A stretch of DNA of 64,000 nucleotides from assembly GCF_015354505.1 (NCBI RefSeq), contig NZ_JACAFP010000002.1, positions 124,001-188,000 on the forward strand, written 5' to 3'. The notes below the pieces were generated by a model. It ran no database searches and was not told where the DNA came from. It was given only the letters and a program-made list of their open reading frames with translations. The stretch comes from Microbacterium sp. UFMG61 (GTDB taxonomy: Bacteria > Actinomycetota > Actinomycetes > Actinomycetales > Microbacteriaceae). The position numbers and the translations under genes were made by a program. Below, one piece after another: positions 7,757 to 20,639 of the stretch (positions are counted from its first letter, which is position 1; every line of letters starts with the position of its first letter).

Positions 7757-8683
7757 ATGGCCGCCGCCGCCCCACCCGCGCAGAAGCGCAAACTCAGCCT
7801 GGCTGCTCGCCATCAGGAACGAGCAGCGTGGAGCTTCCTTGCTCCGTGGTTCGTCGGGATGCTGGCGATCACCGCCTTCCCGATGGTCGCCTCGCTCTAT
7901 CTGTCTTTCACCGACTACAACCTCCTCAAGCCGCCTGAGTTCATCGGCCTCGAGAACTATGCGGACATGCTGAACGATCCCCGACTCGCGAAGTCGCTGG
8001 GCGTGACGTTCACATATGTGTTCCTGGGTGTGCCGCTGCTCATGGCTGCCGCGCTCGGCCTGGCGATCATGCTGAACCGCGGCATCCGCGGTCTGGCGAT
8101 CTACCGCTCGGTCTACTACCTGCCGTCACTTCTTGGCGGTTCGGTAGCGGTGGGCATCCTGTGGCGTCAGCTCTTCGGTACGGAGGGGCTCGTCAACCAG
8201 TTTCTCGCGCTGTTCGGCATCGATGGCCCCGGATGGATCTCGGATCCCGACACGGCGCTCGGAACCCTTGTCGCGCTGCACGTGTGGACGTTCGGGTCCG
8301 CGATGGTCGTCTTCCTCGCAGGGCTGCGACAGATCCCGGAGATGTACTACGAGGCGGCGTCCATCGACGGCGCGGGTCGGTGGCGACAGTTCCGAAGCAT
8401 CACATTGCCGCTGCTCTCGCCGATCATCTTCTTCAATCTGATCCTGCAGATCATCGGCTCGTTCCAGACCTTCACCCAGGCGTTCATCGTCTCCGGTGGT
8501 TCAGGGGGGCCGGCCGACTCGACTCTCTTCTACACGCTCTACCTCTATCAGGAGGGCTTCGGCAAGCGCGACATGGGCTATGCCTCCGCGATGGCCTGGT
8601 TCCTGCTGCTCATCATCGCCGTCTTCACCGCGGTGAATTTCATCGCCTCCAAGCATTGGGTGTTCTACAGTGACCGCGACTGA
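7757..8683 (+). CDS. Carbohydrate ABC transporter permease, MalF/UgpA type
   Basis: A membrane protein of about 308 residues with six predicted helices, the first at about residues 25-45. The cytoplasmic EAA loop reads EAASIDGAGRWRQF, where the shared ATPase docks. The ATG at 7757 is preferred over in-frame ATGs at 7733 and 7742 because GGAGAGG lies 6 bases upstream and the expected transcript starts near 7702. It overlaps the next permease gene by 14 bases. With the partner permease and the lipoprotein it forms a CUT1-type importer. No ATPase gene accompanies it. Confidence 0.92.
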   Translation: MAAAAPPAQKRKLSLAARHQERAAWSFLAPWFVGMLAITAFPMVASLYLSFTDYNLLKPPEFIGLENYADMLNDPRLAKSLGVTFTYVFLGVPLLMAAALGLAIMLNRGIRGLAIYRSVYYLPSLLGGSVAVGILWRQLFGTEGLVNQFLALFGIDGPGWISDPDTALGTLVALHVWTFGSAMVVFLAGLRQIPEMYYEAASIDGAGRWRQFRSITLPLLSPIIFFNLILQIIGSFQTFTQAFIVSGGSGGPADSTLFYTLYLYQEGFGKRDMGYASAMAWFLLLIIAVFTAVNFIASKHWVFYSDRD

Positions 8684-9548
8684 TCTCCTGAAGCGCCGCT
8701 CGAGCGCGCCGTCTGCCCACCGCATCACGCTCTCGAAGGTCGTGAGGCACATCATCCTGATCGCTGTGGGCGTGCTGCTGATCTATCCGCTGCTGTGGAT
8801 GGTCGCGAGCTCGCTCAAGCCGGAGGAGCTGATCTTCCGCGATCCGTCGCTGCTTCCCGAGACGATCGACTTCAGCAATTACACCGATGGCTGGAACGCG
8901 CTGTCGAGTCCCTTCGGTCTCTATCTGCTCAACTCGGGTGCGATCGTCCTCGGCAGTCTGCTGGGCAACCTCATCACCTGCTCGATGGCCGCCTACGCGT
9001 TCGCCAAGCTGGAGTTCCGGGGCAAGAAGATCTTCTTCGCACTCATGCTGATGACTCTGATGCTGCCGATCCACGTGCTCATCGTTCCGCAGTACGTCCT
9101 CTTCTCGAACCTCGGCTGGGTCAACACGTTCCTGCCGCTGATCGTCCCGAAGTTCCTCGCCACCGACGCGTTCTTCATCTTCCTCATGGTGCAGTTCTTC
9201 CGCGGACTCCCCAAGGAACTCGACGAGGCTGCTCGCATCGACGGCGCGGGGTACTGGCGCACCTACTTCCAGGTGCTGCTGCCGCTCTCCGTGCCGGCGC
9301 TCGCCACCACCGCCATCTTCACCTTCATCTGGACCTGGAACGACTTCTACAGTCAGCTCATCTACCTCACACGTCCGGACGTTCTCACGGTCCCCGTCGC
9401 GCTCCGCAACTTCGTCGACTCGACAGGGGGATCCTCCTGGGGTTCGCTGTTCGCGATGTCGGTCGTGACCCTCATCCCTGTCTTCCTCGTCTTCCTCGTG
9501 GGGCAGCGCTACCTGATCAAAGGCATCGCGACCACCGGACTCAAATGA
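8670..9548 (+). CDS. Carbohydrate ABC transporter permease, MalG type
   Basis: A 292-residue inner-membrane permease with an N-terminal helix at about 28-50 and the EAA loop EAARIDGAGYWRTYFQVLLP. It starts with GTG 8670 inside the end of the preceding gene, indicating translational coupling. It pairs with the MalF-type permease to form the pore of a CUT1 sugar importer. GH42 beta-galactosidase is the last gene of the unit, so a galactoside or galacto-oligosaccharide is the probable cargo. Confidence 0.92.
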   Translation: MTATDLLKRRSSAPSAHRITLSKVVRHIILIAVGVLLIYPLLWMVASSLKPEELIFRDPSLLPETIDFSNYTDGWNALSSPFGLYLLNSGAIVLGSLLGNLITCSMAAYAFAKLEFRGKKIFFALMLMTLMLPIHVLIVPQYVLFSNLGWVNTFLPLIVPKFLATDAFFIFLMVQFFRGLPKELDEAARIDGAGYWRTYFQVLLPLSVPALATTAIFTFIWTWNDFYSQLIYLTRPDVLTVPVALRNFVDSTGGSSWGSLFAMSVVTLIPVFLVFLVGQRYLIKGIATTGLK

Positions 9549-9588
9549 CCTCTTCCCTGATCGATCACAACTGCAATGGAGCAATGAC

Positions 9589-10908
9589 ATGACACACCCC
9601 CGCACGAGCCATACGGCTCGACTCGTACGCCTCGCAGCTCTCGGTGCCGCCGTGACGATGGTGCTCGCCGGCTGCACGGCGCCATCGGAATCCGCACCGG
9701 CGACAGCCTCCGATGAGCCGGTCACCATCCGCTTCAACTGGTGGGGATCCGACACCAGGCACACCATGACGCAGCAGGTGATCGACCTGTTCGAGGAGGA
9801 GCACCCGAACATCACGGTGGTGCCCGAGTTCGCTCCGTACACGGACTACTGGGACAAACTCTCCACGACCGTGGCCGCAGGAGACGCCCCTGACGTCATG
9901 CAGCAGGTCGACCCCTTCATCTACGAGTACGTCGACAGCGGTCTGCTCGTGAACCTGTCGGACCACGCGGATGTGCTCCCGCTCGACCAGTTCGATGAGG
10001 GCGCGCTCGAAGGGTCGACGATCGACGACGGGGTATACGGGGTGCCGGGAGGAGTGGGCACGTTCGGCGTCGTCATCGATCCGCAGATCTTCTCGGATGC
10101 GGGGATCGAGGTGCCCGACGACGAGACCTGGACGTGGGACGACTACCTCGACATCGCCGCGGAGATCAGTGAGAAGGCAGGGCCCGACGTCTACGGCGCC
10201 ACGCTCCCGCTCGACGAACAAGGCTTCAATATGTTCATCCGTCAGCGTGGCGAGGATCTCTGGAGCCCCGATGACGCCACGGTCGGATTCACCGAGAAGA
10301 CCGCTGCCGCATGGTGGGAGTACATCCTCGAGCTGCGCGACAGTGGCGCGACGCCGTCGGCCTCGCTTGCGGTCGAGCAGGCATCGCTCGGACTGGAGCA
10401 GTCTCCGATCGCGACCCACACCGCGGCGATGTCCATCCTGTCCGCCAACCAGGTCGAAGCGCTGCAGACAGCCTCTGGACGCGAGCTCGAGCTGCTCCTG
10501 TTCCCTGGCGAGTCCGATGGCGACCGCCCTGGTGCCTACGTCAAGCCCGGCGTGTACTACTCGGTCTCGGCGAAGTCGGAGCATCCGGTCGAGTCCGCGA
10601 TGCTGATCGACTTCATCGTGAACAGCGAGGAGGCGGGTGCGATCCTGCGCTCCGACCGTGGCGTACCGGGGAACAGTGAGGTACTCGCGTCCATCGAAGG
10701 CGACTTCTCGCCGTCGGAGCAGAAGTTGGCGGACTACGTGACCGAGGTTTCCGAGCTGTCGGTCGCCGGCTTCCCGAAGCCGAACCTCGACGCCGGGCCC
10801 GAGCTCGTGCCGCTGTTCGCCAGACTGAACCAGCAGGTGATCTTCGATCAGATCACCCCCGATGAAGCAGCGAAGCAGTTCATCTCCGAGCTCGAAGCAG
10901 CTATGTAG
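9589..10908 (+). CDS. Extracellular sugar-binding lipoprotein of the ABC importer
   Basis: A 439-residue solute-binding protein. The N terminus is a lipoprotein signal: basic start, hydrophobic stretch, lipobox LAGC with Cys29 as the lipidated residue, then a Ser/Ala/Pro linker. The mature part starts VTIRFNWWGSD, typical of cluster-1 sugar binders, with aromatic residues that could stack on sugars. It lies 40 bases after the permease gene and is followed by a hairpin at 10918-10947, which may raise its expression over the downstream GH42 gene. Confidence 0.92.
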   Translation: MTHPRTSHTARLVRLAALGAAVTMVLAGCTAPSESAPATASDEPVTIRFNWWGSDTRHTMTQQVIDLFEEEHPNITVVPEFAPYTDYWDKLSTTVAAGDAPDVMQQVDPFIYEYVDSGLLVNLSDHADVLPLDQFDEGALEGSTIDDGVYGVPGGVGTFGVVIDPQIFSDAGIEVPDDETWTWDDYLDIAAEISEKAGPDVYGATLPLDEQGFNMFIRQRGEDLWSPDDATVGFTEKTAAAWWEYILELRDSGATPSASLAVEQASLGLEQSPIATHTAAMSILSANQVEALQTASGRELELLLFPGESDGDRPGAYVKPGVYYSVSAKSEHPVESAMLIDFIVNSEEAGAILRSDRGVPGNSEVLASIEGDFSPSEQKLADYVTEVSELSVAGFPKPNLDAGPELVPLFARLNQQVIFDQITPDEAAKQFISELEAAM

Positions 10909-10917
10909 CATCGCTGC

Positions 10918-10947
10918 GCGCGGGGCCTCGTGTCAGGGGCCCCGCGC
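10918..10947 (+). terminator. Intercistronic GC hairpin between binding protein and GH42
   Basis: GCGCGGGGCC (10918-10927) and GGCCCCGCGC (10938-10947) form a perfect 10-bp stem with a 10-base loop. No U-run follows, so it is more likely a partial terminator or an mRNA-stabilising element, like those known after malE-type genes, than a full stop. Confidence 0.6.
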
Positions 10948-10983
10948 ACTCCGACCCCGATCAGATCGACCAGAAGGCGTCAC

Positions 10984-12999
10984 GTGACGAACCCCATCCA
11001 CAACTTCACCGCCCGGCTTCCCGGCATCGTCTACGGAGGCGACTACAACCCCGACCAGTGGACGAGGGAGACTTGGCTCGAGGACGCCGCGCTGATGAGG
11101 CAAGCGGGCGTGCGGCTGGTGAGCGTCGGCGTCTTCTCCTGGTCGTCACTGGAGCCCGCTGACGGCCAGCTGGAGTTCGGGTGGCTCGACGAGGTGATGG
11201 ACATCCTGCACGACCACGGGATCTCCGTGAACCTCAGCACGCCGAACGCCGCGCCGCCGCCGTGGCTCGCGACCGAGCATCCAGAGGTGCTTCCCACCAA
11301 CAGGGAGGGGCGGAAGATCGCGATCGGAAGCCGGGCGCACTTCTGCCCGTCATCGGCGGTCTATCGCGAGCGCAGCCAGAAGATCGCGCGAGCGCTCGCG
11401 GAACGCTATGGCAACCACCCGGCTCTGGCGATGTGGCACATCGGCAACGAGTATCACACGCAGTGCTTCTGCGATCAGTGCGGTGCGCGATTCCGGGACT
11501 GGCTTCGTGAGCGACATGGGTCGCTGGACGCTCTCAACGAGCACTGGGGCACGACGTTCTGGAGCCAGCGCTACAGCGACTGGAGTCAGGTCGACCTCCC
11601 GAAACCGGTGATGGGAAACGTGAATCCGGCGCGTGAGCTCGACTTCAAACGCTTCTCCTCCGAGCTGCTGCTCGACTGCTTCCGCGAGGAGCGCGACATC
11701 ATGCGCGCGATCACGCCCGAGATTCCGGTTCTGACGAACTTCATGCGGTTTTTCTCGGGCGCCGATTACACCCGCTGGGCAGCGGAAGAGGATGCTGTCG
11801 CGCTTGACATCTATCCCAACCCCGCCGACCCCGAAGCGCACATCACTGCCGCGTTCAACTACGACCTGATGCGTTCGCTGAAAAGCGGCCAGCCTTGGCT
11901 GATGATGGAGCAGGCCAGCAGTGCCGTCAGCCAGTGGCCGCTCAACCTCGTCAAGCAGCCGGGCCGCATGCGACTGGGATCCTTCCAGGCCATCGCGCAC
12001 GGAGCGGACGCGGTGATGTTCTTCCAGTGGCGTGCCTCGCGGTACGGGCAGGAGAAGTTCCATTCAGCGATGCTGCCGCACAGCGGAACCGACACGCGGA
12101 CCTGGCAGGAGGTCGTCGCGCTCGGTCAGGAACTCGGCCAGCTCGAGGAAATCGCTGGAACCACCGCCGACGCGGCGGTCGCTGTCGTCTGGGACTGGGA
12201 GAACTGGTGGGCGATGGAAGGAGTCGCGCACCCCGCGAAGCTCAGCTACGTGGACATCGTGACCCGGCACTTCACTCCGCTCTGGAATCGCAACATCGCC
12301 ACCGACGTGGTTACCCTCGATGCGGATCTGTCGGGCTATCGCCTAATCGTGATCCCGAACAGTTACGTGCTCACCGACGCGCAGGCCGAGCGGCTCGACG
12401 CATACGTGAGGTCGGGCGGACACGTGCTGATCTCCTTCTTCTCGGGCATCGTGGACGAGCACGATCGGGTGATCCCCGGCGGCTACCCCGGCGGTCTGCT
12501 GTCGCTCATCGGCGGACGCGTGCGCGAGTTCTCGCCACTGCCATCGGAGGAGCGGATTCGCGTGAATCTGAGAGGATCAGAGGCGGATGCCGGTCTGTGG
12601 CAGGACGACCTCGTCTCGGCTGCTGCGGCGGTGCTCGCAACGTACGCCGATGGATATCTCGAGGGACAGGCGGCGGCGCTGCGTCACGAGCTCGGAGACG
12701 GAGTGGTGACGTACCTGGGCACCCAGTTGAGCGAAGCGGGCATGCACCGCGTGCTCGACACCGTGCTCGACGATGCGCAGGTGCGCCCTGTGATTGAGAC
12801 GCCGGCCGGCGTCGAGGCGGTCGAGAGGCACGGACCGGAGGGGTCGTATCTCTTCCTCCTCAATCATGGGCAGCGCGTTGTGGAGATCGATCTTCCTCGG
12901 AACGCGACGGATCTGCTCGCGGGGGGAGCGGTCCGCGCTTCAGGGGACACTCTGAATCTCGAAGCCGCGGCCGTCGCCGTCCTGAAGTACGACAGATAG
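10984..12999 (+). CDS. Beta-galactosidase, GH42
   Basis: A 671-residue intracellular GH42 enzyme. The acid/base is Glu156 (WHIGNEYH) and the nucleophile Glu309 (LMMEQASS). The structural zinc site is complete: Cys121, Cys161, Cys163 and Cys166. A trimerisation/glutaminase-like domain follows (about 400-600) and then a small beta-domain. GTG 10984 is chosen because GAAGG lies just upstream and homology begins with GIVYGGDYNPDQW. GH42 enzymes act on galactans and galacto-oligosaccharides, consistent with pectin side chains. The gene faces the LacI gene at 13046. Confidence 0.92.
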   Translation: MTNPIHNFTARLPGIVYGGDYNPDQWTRETWLEDAALMRQAGVRLVSVGVFSWSSLEPADGQLEFGWLDEVMDILHDHGISVNLSTPNAAPPPWLATEHPEVLPTNREGRKIAIGSRAHFCPSSAVYRERSQKIARALAERYGNHPALAMWHIGNEYHTQCFCDQCGARFRDWLRERHGSLDALNEHWGTTFWSQRYSDWSQVDLPKPVMGNVNPARELDFKRFSSELLLDCFREERDIMRAITPEIPVLTNFMRFFSGADYTRWAAEEDAVALDIYPNPADPEAHITAAFNYDLMRSLKSGQPWLMMEQASSAVSQWPLNLVKQPGRMRLGSFQAIAHGADAVMFFQWRASRYGQEKFHSAMLPHSGTDTRTWQEVVALGQELGQLEEIAGTTADAAVAVVWDWENWWAMEGVAHPAKLSYVDIVTRHFTPLWNRNIATDVVTLDADLSGYRLIVIPNSYVLTDAQAERLDAYVRSGGHVLISFFSGIVDEHDRVIPGGYPGGLLSLIGGRVREFSPLPSEERIRVNLRGSEADAGLWQDDLVSAAAAVLATYADGYLEGQAAALRHELGDGVVTYLGTQLSEAGMHRVLDTVLDDAQVRPVIETPAGVEAVERHGPEGSYLFLLNHGQRVVEIDLPRNATDLLAGGAVRASGDTLNLEAAAVAVLKYDR

Positions 13000-17394: not shown

Positions 17395-18081
17395 TCAATC
17401 TGCGACGGTGTCACGAGCGGCGGGTTCGGATCGGAACTCGAGAAAGCCTGCGTAGTCGGGAAACAGGATCTTTGCGGTCCGGTTGTATGTGTTCTCGAGG
17501 TAGCGCAGCAGCTTCTTCTTCAAGCCGGCCTTGATGATCACCGCGACGAACGGCAGCGCGGATGGATGCCCACGCTGCCTGTCAGCACTGAGGCTAGCCG
17601 CAAGCTTCGCTGAGTCTCCGCGCACCCACGGTATGTCTATCGCCTCGAATGGGTCGATCCTCTGGATGCGGAAGTCCTTCGTGCCTGAGGGTGACGCGAT
17701 CACTTCCCCGCGAGGAGGGGGAATCGCGCCGGCGACGAAGAACCCTTCCTGGGCTCGGAGTCGCTCGTTGGGAACAGCGGATCGCACCAGGAATGGCGTC
17801 GGGTCCAGGAGAGCGTCATGCAAAGTTGATCCGGTGGGACTATGCAGGGAACCCCAGCTGCGTCCGGCGGGAACGGTCGAGATCTGGCGCATGCCTGTCG
17901 TGTTGAGAGCGACGAGAATCCCGCTCTTCGCGGCGCCGGGTGCCTTAGGTGACTGGCAGGCGAACCAGAGGGCCGTCATCGGGTTGCTCGTGAAATCAAG
18001 CAGTCTGGTCGCGATCCCGTAGTGCTGCAGGTCTGCGAGGAGCTGCATGTCATCGACATAACCGCCGGGACCGATCCCCAA
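17395..18081 (-). CDS. FRG-domain protein, probably truncated at the N terminus
   Basis: A 228-residue frame starting at TTG 18081. Residues about 14-42 (LLADLQHYGIATRLLDFTSN...) are the hallmark QHyGlpTRLLDwT core of the FRG domain. The typical start of that domain, the fRGQ motif about 60-70 residues earlier, is absent, and the opposite strand becomes coding from about 18090. So the gene has probably lost its 5' end. FRG proteins have no settled biochemical role but are common in mobile and defence-rich regions. The neighbours here are an integrase remnant and unknown genes. Confidence 0.6.
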   Translation of the reverse strand: MGIGPGGYVDDMQLLADLQHYGIATRLLDFTSNPMTALWFACQSPKAPGAAKSGILVALNTTGMRQISTVPAGRSWGSLHSPTGSTLHDALLDPTPFLVRSAVPNERLRAQEGFFVAGAIPPPRGEVIASPSGTKDFRIQRIDPFEAIDIPWVRGDSAKLAASLSADRQRGHPSALPFVAVIIKAGLKKKLLRYLENTYNRTAKILFPDYAGFLEFRSEPAARDTVAD

Positions 18082-18182
18082 GCCCCAGTCTCTCGCTGCC
18101 GCTGGGCAAGTCCCCCGGCGATGGCGAAGAGGCCGCCCTTCCGGACGGGATCGATGAGGCTACACGGGACTGGGCTGCGTCT

Positions 18183-18665
18183 TTGCCGGCGCTGCGAGAC
18201 GAAGACCTCGATCCGTACATCAGCCTTGCCGCGAGCCTAATCAACGTCAGCATGGGCGCCCAAGTCTCGGATGACGTCCTAGGGCTCATCAACGCCCTAC
18301 TGGGCGAGAGCGAGGCAGCGCGGAACGTTGCTGCCGACACCCTCAGCGAGCGGGGCCAGGACGAGCAACTGGCGGCTCTCGACGTTCTGATCGGCGCGAC
18401 CAAACGTACCGATGACGCCGAAGCGGTCGTGCGAGGCACGGTGCTCTGGGTCAGCAAGAACCACACGCTAGAAGATGCAGCCGCGACTGGAATCGCGGCG
18501 CACTGCTGGGGCGCCCGACTGACCCCTGGCGCGATCGTTGAGCTCGCCGGCAGCGGGCGCCCTGCCCTGATCGGGCTGGTACGTCGTGCAGCGACGGACA
18601 CGTCGCTGCACCCTTCAGTGCAGGCTGCGGCCAGTGATGAAGTGGAGCAGCTCAGTGGGAACTAG
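18183..18665 (+). CDS. Unknown alpha-helical protein, possibly truncated
   Basis: Not recognised. 160 residues from TTG 18183; the frame is open and protein-like upstream to about 18090 (GKSPGDGEEAALPDGIDEA) but has no ATG, GTG or TTG there, so the true N terminus may have been lost. The sequence is rich in Ala, Leu, Asp and Glu and looks all-helical, in a pattern that could form helical repeats; there are no membrane segments and no catalytic motif. It overlaps the next gene by 11 bases, implying co-translation with it. It meets the truncated FRG gene head to head. Confidence 0.5.
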   Translation: MPALRDEDLDPYISLAASLINVSMGAQVSDDVLGLINALLGESEAARNVAADTLSERGQDEQLAALDVLIGATKRTDDAEAVVRGTVLWVSKNHTLEDAAATGIAAHCWGARLTPGAIVELAGSGRPALIGLVRRAATDTSLHPSVQAAASDEVEQLSGN

Positions 18666-19437
18666 TGGCGCCTACGGCGGCAGCAACTCGGCCGAGTGGA
18701 ACGACTTCCGTGATGCATGGAGCGGGCTCAGTAGCGGTGGTGCGGACGGAGGCCCGAGCGATGGCGACGGCACCGTCGACATCATCGCTCCGGCAGATAC
18801 GCTGTTCGATCCTGCCCGGCCAGCCTCGGACTTGGATAGGGTCGGGCAGGCGCTCGCGGATGCACTGTGGCGGGATGACCCTGCATCCCGGCGCAACACC
18901 GTACCGCCAATCCCTCGGCCCCGAGTTCCCGGACGGCGTGGTGCGGGCGCGGGAGGGACGGGAGCGGGAAGCGGTTCCACCGGCAGGTCGGCAGGTACCG
19001 GGTCCCCTGTGCAAGTAACGCGCGATATCGATTGGCGTGACGAGCTGAGGCACGAGTACACCCCCTGGTCGGAAGCATCGGAACGGATACTGCTCAACGA
19101 GGAACTGGATCGACAGGTTCTTGAGAACATGGGGAGGCCGCGCTCCGACGCCGAAAAGAACGCACATTTCGATGCGCTACTTGATGAGTATCGGGATCCA
19201 GAGCGAGTTTCGGAGGCGAGCGATCGACAGGTTCGCCCGAGTTTGCCCGTCGCGCGTGCGGCGAAGAAGCTCGGGATCGGGCCGATCGAGGTGGAGCGCT
19301 GGGCTCGAAAGCTCTGGGCCAAGGCATACGAACGTGAGTCGCGCGAGCGAGCCGGTGACACGAGTTCCCCGCAGGCCCGTGGGCGAGTGAACCGGATCTT
19401 GGTCGAGGAGATCCGCAAAGCCATGGGAGGCAGTTGA
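18655..19437 (+). CDS. Unknown protein with N-terminal GTSGAYGGS signature
   Basis: 260 residues from GTG 18655, with GGAG 7 bases upstream. The start overlaps the previous gene by 11 bases. The N terminus GTSGAYGGSNSAEW recalls the GTSxxYGG opening of QatB-type proteins of the Qat anti-phage system and of several other unknown proteins; the rest does not obviously match. A Gly/Ser/Arg-rich linker lies at about 95-120. A charged helical C-terminal region (about 120-260) follows, with a possible short helix-turn-helix at about 205-225 (ARAAKKLGIGPIEVERWARK). Its stop overlaps the integrase start (TGATG), so the three genes form one translational unit. Confidence 0.6.
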   Translation: MGTSGAYGGSNSAEWNDFRDAWSGLSSGGADGGPSDGDGTVDIIAPADTLFDPARPASDLDRVGQALADALWRDDPASRRNTVPPIPRPRVPGRRGAGAGGTGAGSGSTGRSAGTGSPVQVTRDIDWRDELRHEYTPWSEASERILLNEELDRQVLENMGRPRSDAEKNAHFDALLDEYRDPERVSEASDRQVRPSLPVARAAKKLGIGPIEVERWARKLWAKAYERESRERAGDTSSPQARGRVNRILVEEIRKAMGGS

Positions 19438-20431
19438 TGCCGCGCCCGCGCACGCCGCTGAGCAGCTACGGAACGATCAACCTGTCGGAGCTCCAACCAG
19501 GAAAATGGCGAGCGCGGACTCGCTACCGATTCATGGACGGAAAGTCGCGACAGATCGAACGCTTCGGGGCCACCTCTAAGAAAGCAGAGATCGCCCTTAA
19601 GACGGCCTTAGTCGGGATCGAAGCGGATGCCGGGGGCGAACTCAAGCCGTCGACTCGCCTCAGTGATCTGGCACAGCGATTTCTCGTTGCGAAGCGCGAT
19701 GCGGGCCGTGCCGAAGGCTCGTTGGCAACCTACGGCTCCGCGATAAAGATGCACATCTCTCCGAAGATCGGCGACCTGTCCGTGACCTTGAGAGGATCTC
19801 GCAGCGGAAGACGCGGGCTTCCAAGGCCATTCCATTGGAGGAACTCCCGCGCTTCCTGGAACGGCTGCGCGCAGATCCGAAGTTGGTTGCCGCAGACACA
19901 GTAGAGCTCGTCGAGTTCATGCTGGTGTCAGGTTGGAGAATCGCCGAAGCGTGTGCGCTCGACATGGATGCGGTGAACTGGCGTGATCAGACGGTCGCGG
20001 TGGAAGCGATCAACATCCGGGTAAAGGGACGGGGGATCGTCAGACAAGAGTTTCCGAAGACTGAGAAGTCGTGGCGCGTGACCCCGCTCCCTGCATCCGC
20101 CATCGCGATGCTCGCGAGGCGTCGCGACCGGCTGTCCGAGTTCACCACGGTTCTTTTCCCAACTGTCCAGATGAAGTTGCGGGATCCGTCGAACACGCAG
20201 CGGGAGATTCGGGAGAGCCGAGACAATCTGGGGTACCCCGAGCTGTCGACTCACTCGTTCCGCAAGACGGTCGCGACGATCCTCGACAGGGCGGGGCTGT
20301 CCGCCACGGAAATTGCGGACTACCTCGGCCACGAAGATCCGAGCCTCACAATGGGGACCTACATGAACACTCTGAAAGGCGGGACTAAGCCGGCGATGGT
20401 GCTGCAGGAGCAGCTCAAGGGCCTGTTTTGA
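19437..20431 (+). pseudogene. Tyrosine recombinase (phage-type integrase), internally deleted and frameshifted
   Basis: The first part, from ATG 19437 with GGGAGG upstream, carries the Arg-rich N-terminal domain and the beginning of the SAM-like core-binding domain up to KIGDLSV near 19780. Coding then resumes in another frame with LERISQRKTRASKAIPLEELPRFL and runs to 20431 as a complete catalytic domain: Arg (WRIAEA, codon 19937), HSFR, LGHED and Tyr in TYMNT. Roughly 60-80 residues of the core-binding domain appear to be missing at the junction. As written it cannot be one protein. It lies 136 bp from the 3' end of tRNA-Phe, the classic target of such enzymes. Confidence 0.85.
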
Positions 20432-20539: not shown

Positions 20540-20566
20540 CCTAAGGTGACTGTAATGATCACCCTG

Positions 20567-20639
20567 TGGCTCCGACGGGCGTCGATCCCGTGACCTCACG
20601 ATTTTCAGTCGTGCGCTCTACCAACTGAGCTACAGAGCC
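20567..20639 (-). tRNA. tRNA-Phe (anticodon GAA)
   Basis: 73 nt. The acceptor stem GGCTCTG pairs with CGGAGCC (one G-U), the discriminator is A, and the anticodon loop is CTGAAAA. The T-stem ACGGG/CCCGT is intact, but its loop reads ATCGACG, so the usually invariant T54 is A. CCA is not encoded. Its 3' end faces the integrase remnant, so it is the likely attachment site of the accessory element. Confidence 0.93.

What the first reader, a model, noticed from the sequence alone, without database searches (positions are those of the whole stretch)
17395..20431. Possible decayed genomic island at tRNA-Phe with an FRG gene and a coupled unknown-unknown-integrase unit
Directly visible: two unknown genes and a tyrosine recombinase overlap by 11 and 3 bases in one translational unit, ending 136 bp from the tRNA-Phe 3' end. 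An FRG-domain gene lies head to head with them. FRG proteins are frequent in defence-rich regions, and one of the coupled proteins starts GTSGAYGGS, similar to the QatB opening of the Qat system. The combination of an integrase with these two unknowns in one unit is not one I recognise. A defence role is inference only.
Basis: partly seen in the sequence, partly recalled or inferred. Interest (0 to 1): 0.62.

Follow-up and report, generated by a model that had tools for sequence, protein, structure and literature searches.

The report
Deletion-scarred remains of a Qat island
What looked like a new three-gene unit is the wreck of a mobile DNA island beside a tRNA gene, in which large deletions have cut short a known anti-virus defence system (Qat) and glued part of it onto the island's own control gene, so it is an ordinary genetic fossil rather than a new system.

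Summary
The sequence is as described in outline, but the "unknown-unknown-integrase unit" is not a native operon. Unknown 1 (18120-18665) is the 3' end of qatA: 69-76% identical to the C-terminus of the QatA ATPase in intact qatABCD operons of Isoptericola, Arthrobacter and an Actinomycetales MAG. Unknown 2 (18655-19437) is a chimera: residues 1-117 are the QatB N-terminal tail (68% identity over 116 residues, same 11-bp qatA/qatB overlap); residues ~148-260 are the C-terminus of the regulator that normally precedes this integrase. The integrase lacks 50 codons and is frameshifted. The FRG gene has lost its first ~78 codons, at a junction within ~23 bp of the qatA break. The seven closest other integrases in the genus sit at the same tRNA-Phe. 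No second att copy and no QatC were found in the genome. Best reading: a decayed mobile island whose Qat cargo was destroyed by at least three deletions. Interest is low.

The parts
17395..18096 (-). FRG-domain gene, 5'-truncated (lacks ~78 N-terminal codons of ~305)
   Evidence: Pfam FRG 56-91/94 E 5.7e-12; 54% identity over 222 aa to a 305-aa intact same-genus FRG protein from its residue 78 on; the 7 homologues fetched, of 9 found, have ORFs of 293-396 aa
18097..18119 (.). deletion junction 1: FRG 5' end joined to qatA, both head to head
   Evidence: FRG homology stops at ~18096 and qatA homology starts at 18120
18120..18665 (+). qatA remnant: C-terminal ~181 codons of the KAP-type ATPase QatA ('unknown 1')
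   Evidence: 76%, 75% and 69% identity to QatA C-termini in L094, L095, L078/L096; 37% to L016 QatA
18655..19005 (+). qatB 5' part: QatB N-terminal tail with the (M)GTS opening (residues 1-117 of 'unknown 2')
   Evidence: 68% identity over 116 residues to Isoptericola QatB; score 421 vs maximum 88 in 300 shuffles
19006..19095 (+). deletion junction 2 lies about here: qatB joined in frame to the regulator gene
   Evidence: change-point scan equal at residues 116-132, one point lower at 144; regulator alignment begins at residue 148 against L013 and at window 19093 in the genome search
19096..19437 (+). 3' part of the regulator gene that normally precedes this integrase (C-terminal domain only)
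   Evidence: 38-40% identity over 113-145 aa to regulators in L011 and L013, same place upstream of the integrase; score 198 vs maximum 71 in 300 shuffles; the whole regulator finds only this part (its residues 132-243) in the own genome
19437..19784 (+). tyrosine integrase, N-terminal part (residues 1-116)
   Evidence: 62% identity over 116 aa to 381-aa integrases in L011-L014; alignment
19785..19786 (.). deletion 3 inside the integrase: 50 codons replaced by 2 bases, with frameshift
   Evidence: alignment of the two halves with the intact integrases of L011, L012, L128, L129
19787..20431 (+). tyrosine integrase, C-terminal catalytic part in another frame
   Evidence: Pfam Phage_integrase E 1.7e-18; 60-62% identity over 211 aa to the integrases of L011-L014
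20566..20639 (-). tRNA-Phe, integration site; its first 44 bases (20566-20609) are the stretch repeated beside this tRNA in some relatives
   Evidence: ARAGORN; second copies of about this stretch near the same tRNA-Phe in G006, G011, G021; no second copy in the window's own genome

Best explanation
A mobile island with a regulator-integrase pair integrated at tRNA-Phe and carried an FRG gene and a qatABCD anti-phage operon. At least three deletions then ruined it. One removed the 5' ends of the FRG gene and of qatA, which face each other, with whatever lay between. One removed the end of qatB, qatC, qatD, any further genes up to the regulator, and the regulator's DNA-binding half, fusing the QatB tail in frame to the regulator's C-terminal domain. 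One removed 50 codons of the integrase and shifted its frame. [quoted passage not shown] Here no QatC was found in the genome and QatB lacks its C-terminal domain, so Qat defence should not run. The integrase is broken and no second att copy was found, so the island should not move. Shown by sequence: the truncations, the fusion, no match to QatC, to the regulator's other half or to a second att. Inferred: that these were successive simple deletions from one island, and that the products are inactive.
For: U1 is the QatA C-terminus: 69% (Isoptericola chiayiensis), 75% (Arthrobacter sp. HY1533) and 76% (Actinomycetales MAG Actino_02) identity, each beside QatB, QatC and QatD. DNA homology to the intact Isoptericola operon runs from 18120 to 18956 and stops at both ends. 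The 11-bp qatA/qatB overlap is the same in L016, L073, L078, L094 and L095. U2 halves: 1-117 vs QatB scores 421 (shuffle max 88) and vs regulators 41; 118-260 vs regulators 198 (shuffle max 71) and vs QatB 36; the C-termini of 4 of 4 intact QatBs do not resemble the regulators. A whole regulator as query finds only its residues 132-243 in the own genome, at this place, but 61-62% identity over nearly the whole length in 2 of 2 control genomes. The seven closest other integrases found (59-100% to the L011 query) sit at tRNA-Phe, like the window's. No QatC in the own genome, while 3 of 3 control genomes are positive; no QatA at E 1e-20. No second att.
Against: No genome with the whole ancestral island (FRG + Qat + regulator + integrase at tRNA-Phe) was found, so the original arrangement is inferred. 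FRG homologues were absent near the 11 distinct Qat loci and the 7 related integrase loci searched, and Qat was absent near the 7 FRG loci fetched, so FRG and Qat need not have been neighbours; an inversion or a second insertion could have brought them together. No Qat remnant like U1 was seen in the 7 related integrase loci either. The closest Qat operons show no tRNA in the stretches held (L078, L094, L095, L096). pN/pS of the qatA remnant is as low as between intact copies, so no decay is visible apart from the deletions. The in-frame fusion and the kept overlaps could be read as selection for the product, though one junction in three is in frame by chance.
Confidence: 0.92

Rival explanations
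1. The three genes are a functional, novel coupled unit: a small HEAT-like protein and a GTSGAYGGS protein acting with an integrase, perhaps in defence.
For: Open frames across U1 and U2, conserved overlaps; low pN/pS of U1 against intact qatA.
Against: U1 and U2 1-117 are truncated pieces of qatA and qatB; U2 118-260 is the regulator's end; the integrase is frameshifted with 50 codons lost; the arrangement was not seen again in 295 and 366 same-genus genomes.
Confidence: 0.03
2. A minimal or reduced Qat variant that works without QatC and QatD.
For: The MGTS-type tail is retained, and PMC13279940 (abstract and passages) reports that QatA and QatD are dispensable against some phages.
Against: The same paper finds QatB and QatC to be the minimal unit and their interface needed; here no QatC was found in the genome and QatB's C-terminal part is replaced.
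Confidence: 0.02
3. The apparent deletions are an assembly artefact joining reads from separate loci.
For: The genome is a draft in 34 contigs and raw reads were not available.
Against: Three separate junctions within 2 kb, in a 378-kb contig. The missing QatC and the missing regulator half have no match elsewhere in the genome, and the integrase query finds only this copy at E 1e-60.
Confidence: 0.03

Closest known systems
Qat (qatABCD) anti-phage system
   Same: U1 is 69-76% identical to QatA C-termini and U2 1-116 is 68% identical to QatB of an intact operon, with the same 11-bp gene overlap
   Different: QatA NTPase domain, QatB C-terminal part, QatC and QatD are missing from the locus, and no QatC was found in the genome
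Regulator-integrase module of islands at tRNA-Phe in the same genus (L011-L014, L127)
   Same: Same tRNA site, integrase 60-62% identical in the parts kept, same order and the same 1-base overlap
   Different: Regulator lacks its HTH half; integrase lacks 50 codons; no relaxase or D5-type helicase among the eight window ORFs to the left scanned with Pfam (not every ORF was scanned)
FRG-domain proteins (PADLOC candidate class PDC-S15; ART-superfamily clade)
   Same: Pfam FRG E 5.7e-12 and PDC-S15 best E 7.7e-20
   Different: 5'-truncated; the first ~78 residues are gone

Membership tests
Qat system (qatABCD) | KAP-family P-loop NTPase QatA with NTPase domain | tested here: not met
   Only the C-terminal ~181 codons remain; no other QatA in the genome at E 1e-20
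Qat system (qatABCD) | QatB with MGTS N-terminal tail | tested here: met
   GTG start then GTSGAYGGS, 68% identity over 116 residues to Isoptericola QatB
Qat system (qatABCD) | QatB C-terminal helical domain that binds QatC | tested here: not met
   U2 118-260 scores 36 vs QatB, within shuffles, and 198 vs regulators
Qat system (qatABCD) | QueC-like QatC | tested here: not met
   No match in own genome; same query positive in 3 of 3 control genomes
Qat system (qatABCD) | TatD-like QatD in the operon | tested here: not met
   The stretch 18665-20431 is filled by U2 and integrase, and their Pfam scans show no TatD domain; the rest of the genome was not searched for QatD
Tyrosine integrase (Pfam PF00589), active | One open frame with core-binding and catalytic domains | tested here: not met
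   Two frames, 50 codons of the core-binding region missing
tRNA-Phe genomic island | Integrase of the family that targets this tRNA | tested here: met
   The seven closest other integrases of 22 found sit at tRNA-Phe, like the window's; of the 15 more distant ones 5 were fetched, all by tRNA-Thr, two of them with a tRNA-Met too
tRNA-Phe genomic island | Direct repeat of the tRNA 3' end at the far end | tested here: not met
   Single copy in window and genome
FRG-domain protein, intact | Complete FRG domain | tested here: not met
   Profile positions 56-91 of 94 only, against 2-91 in the intact homologue L097

The most novel reading that the evidence does not exclude
The in-frame fusion is expressed and useful: a QatB tail that can be modified, carried on the C-terminal domain of an island regulator, might act on the QatC of incoming Qat-bearing elements (as decoy or sensor) or control what remains of the island.
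Probability: 0.03. Interest if true: 0.55.

Novelty: new member of a known kind. Interest (0 to 1): 0.15.

Why it matters
It closes a lead: the unit is a fossil of a known defence system, not a new one. It shows how deletions can leave open, overlapping frames that look like a translationally coupled operon, and that a short N-terminal motif (GTSGAYGGS) can correctly flag Qat remains. It also points to tRNA-Phe in this genus as a site used by elements that carry defence genes (an ApeA-domain gene in L011, with a 93% identical copy in L012).

Tried and rejected
Library scans of U2 gave nothing useful (Pfam, PADLOC, NCBIfam, PHROGs, and its halves in NCBIfam). PADLOC also missed the three intact QatBs that I scanned (L078, L094, L016), so absence of a QatB hit there meant nothing. 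The first scan of genome contigs with U1 alone found nothing; the alignment-based scan found three loci. A plasmid search with the FRG fragment gave 7 records of distant FRG matches, one without an annotated gene. Search for the second att copy in the window and own genome: none. I tried to delimit the island by comparison with relatives: none of the 8 stretches fetched after (up to ~18 kb left of the tRNA) aligns to the window left of 20488, and a backbone gene 7.6 kb from the tRNA in G001 is 83 kb away here, so the left edge stays undetermined. FRG-Qat neighbourhood as a recurrent pair: not found, 0 of 11 distinct Qat loci with FRG, 0 of 7 FRG loci with Qat; an earlier motif search for FRG was too strict and is superseded. 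Structure of U2: AlphaFold2 mean pLDDT 60.9, only residues ~194-258 confident; Foldseek against PDB gave 23 matches at E <= 10 and none at E <= 0.001. Paper searches in the held library for Microbacterium + tRNA-Phe + genomic island, and for qatABCD + pseudogene, returned 0 papers each.

Full report
Observation. The ORFs, the 11-base overlap, the GTSGAYGGS opening, the FRG ORF and the tRNA-Phe are present. The recombinase is split into two frames, 19434-19904 and 19835-20431, and the FRG ORF matches only positions 56-91 of the 94-position FRG profile. So damage was visible before any comparison.

Unknown 1 is the end of qatA. The 160-aa ORF matched QatA weakly in two libraries (PADLOC E 0.033, NCBIfam E 0.028). 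A same-genus genome (G210) gave 37% identity over 175 aa to the C-terminus of a 576-aa KAP ATPase. That ATPase is followed by QatB-, QatC- and QatD-like genes (NCBIfam QatA 2e-81, QatB 0.0083, QatC 7.4e-78, QatD 5.3e-39, none above its curated cut-off). A survey of 396 genomes of the order with the NCBIfam QatA model gave 12 with a match at E <= 1e-20, none over the curated cut-off and the window's own genome not among them. I fetched 9 of those 12; seven have QatC and QatD beside QatA, two (G440, G401) showed only the ATPase. One of the seven, G392, has a 707-aa QatA whose last 181 residues are 69% identical to unknown 1. A collection scan with an alignment named three such loci: an Actinomycetales MAG (76%), Arthrobacter sp. 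HY1533 (75%) and Isoptericola chiayiensis (69%, the same proteins as G392), all with QatB, QatC and QatD behind QatA.

Unknown 2 is a fusion. Its residues 1-116 are 68% identical to the Isoptericola QatB, and the 11-base overlap with qatA is the same as in L016, L073, L078, L094 and L095; more distant Qat loci differ (e.g. 1 base in L079 and L080). Its C-terminal part is 38-40% identical to the C-terminus of a helix-turn-helix protein that lies directly upstream of an intact 381-aa integrase in L011-L014 (HTH domains by Pfam in L011 and L012). With shuffled controls, residues 1-117 score 421 against QatB (shuffle maximum 88) and 41 against the regulators; residues 118-260 score 198 against the regulators (shuffle maximum 71) and 36 against QatB. 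The C-terminal parts of 4 of 4 intact QatBs do not resemble the regulators (32-35, within shuffles). A full-length regulator as query matches the own genome only with its residues 132-243, at window 19093-19425, while it matches over nearly its whole length in 2 of 2 control genomes: the DNA-binding half was not found in the genome. The split cannot be placed more closely than residues ~116-147.

The integrase is broken. Against the intact relatives in L011, L012, L128 and L129 the window keeps residues 1-116 and 167-381, with 2 bases in place of 150 between them, hence a frameshift. In 366 same-genus genomes 23, the window's included, matched the L011 integrase at E <= 1e-60. The seven closest others (59-100% identity to the query, which is one of them; the window has 61%) all lie beside tRNA-Phe. 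Three of them (L013, L014, L127) carry near-identical elements, so they are not independent. Of the 15 more distant ones I fetched 5; all lie beside a tRNA-Thr, two of these with a tRNA-Met as well. A homologous regulator precedes the integrase in 5 of the 7; L129 has another protein there with HTH matches below Pfam's curated cut-off; none was recognised in L128.

Junction with FRG. The window FRG is 54% identical over 222 aa to a 305-aa protein starting at that protein's residue 78. FRG homology ends at ~18096 and qatA homology begins at 18120. One break therefore cut both genes. FRG was not found beside any of 11 distinct Qat loci (8-20 kb each) or 7 related integrase loci, nor Qat beside 7 FRG loci, so there is no sign that the two form a standing pair. 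The nature of the event that joined them is inferred.

Extent of the island. In at least three same-genus genomes (G006, G011, G021) a second copy of the tRNA-Phe 3' end lies about 2.7-14 kb from the tRNA; which integrases made those islands I did not examine, and further partial copies in other genomes were left. The window's genome has no second copy. None of the 8 stretches fetched from relatives aligns to the window left of 20488. The left edge is unknown.

Function. From the abstract and passages of PMC13279940: QatB and QatC form the minimal defence unit, the MGTS N-terminus of QatB with its glycine is essential, and QatA and QatD affect the range. Here QatC has no match in the genome, with the same query positive in 3 of 3 control genomes, and the C-terminal part of QatB is replaced. 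So Qat defence should not operate. PMC9503650 (passages) places the FRG domain in the ART superfamily as a possible NADase effector; the window copy lacks more than the first half of the domain.

Age. Over the last 180 qatA codons the window differs from intact copies with pN 0.137-0.165 and pS 0.68-0.756; intact pairs give 0.168 and 0.778 (L094-L095), 0.184 and 0.846 (L095-L078), 0.056 and 0.392 (L094-L078). The remains show no accumulated decay beyond the deletions, which suggests, but does not prove, that these are recent.

Verdict. A decayed tRNA-Phe island with Qat remains and a deletion-born fusion gene. The genus is probably Microbacterium (my inference from genome size, GC and the large genus; no call named it).

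Noticed in passing
L011:6572-7906 and L012:4281-5615: A 444-aa protein between the integrase and tRNA-Phe carries an ApeA N-terminal domain (PF18862, E 7e-26 in L011; the L012 copy is 93% identical), a likely defence cargo of intact relatives of this island. PADLOC gave no hit for it.
   Followed up: partly
L013:1338-8482, L014:1420-8564, L127:6047-13191: Three same-genus genomes hold near-identical elements at tRNA-Phe (proteins 100% identical between L013 and L014; L127 judged by matching protein starts), with a MobA/VirD2-type relaxase (PF03432, tested in L013), regulator and integrase: a recently moving, probably mobilizable element.
   Followed up: partly
L011:2467-4041 and L012:8025-10037: D5-type primase-helicase domains (PF08706, PF19263) in the same kind of island suggest phage-satellite or plasmid-like replication.
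   Followed up: no
window left of 20431: A backbone gene 7.6 kb from this tRNA in the close relative G001 lies 83 kb away in the window's genome: a large variable region whose left edge I did not find.
   Followed up: partly
L073 (NZ_CP088909.1, Rhodococcus qingshengii pLP1) 7837-12396: Qat operon on a linear plasmid, with QatB in two overlapping frames annotated as two hypothetical proteins; possibly a frameshift in qatB.
   Followed up: no
L078:6028-6894, L094:10536-11402, L016:6988-7833: PADLOC-DB 2.0.0 gave no QatB hit at E <= 0.1 for any of these three QatB proteins of actinobacterial Qat operons: a gap in detection of divergent QatB.
   Followed up: no
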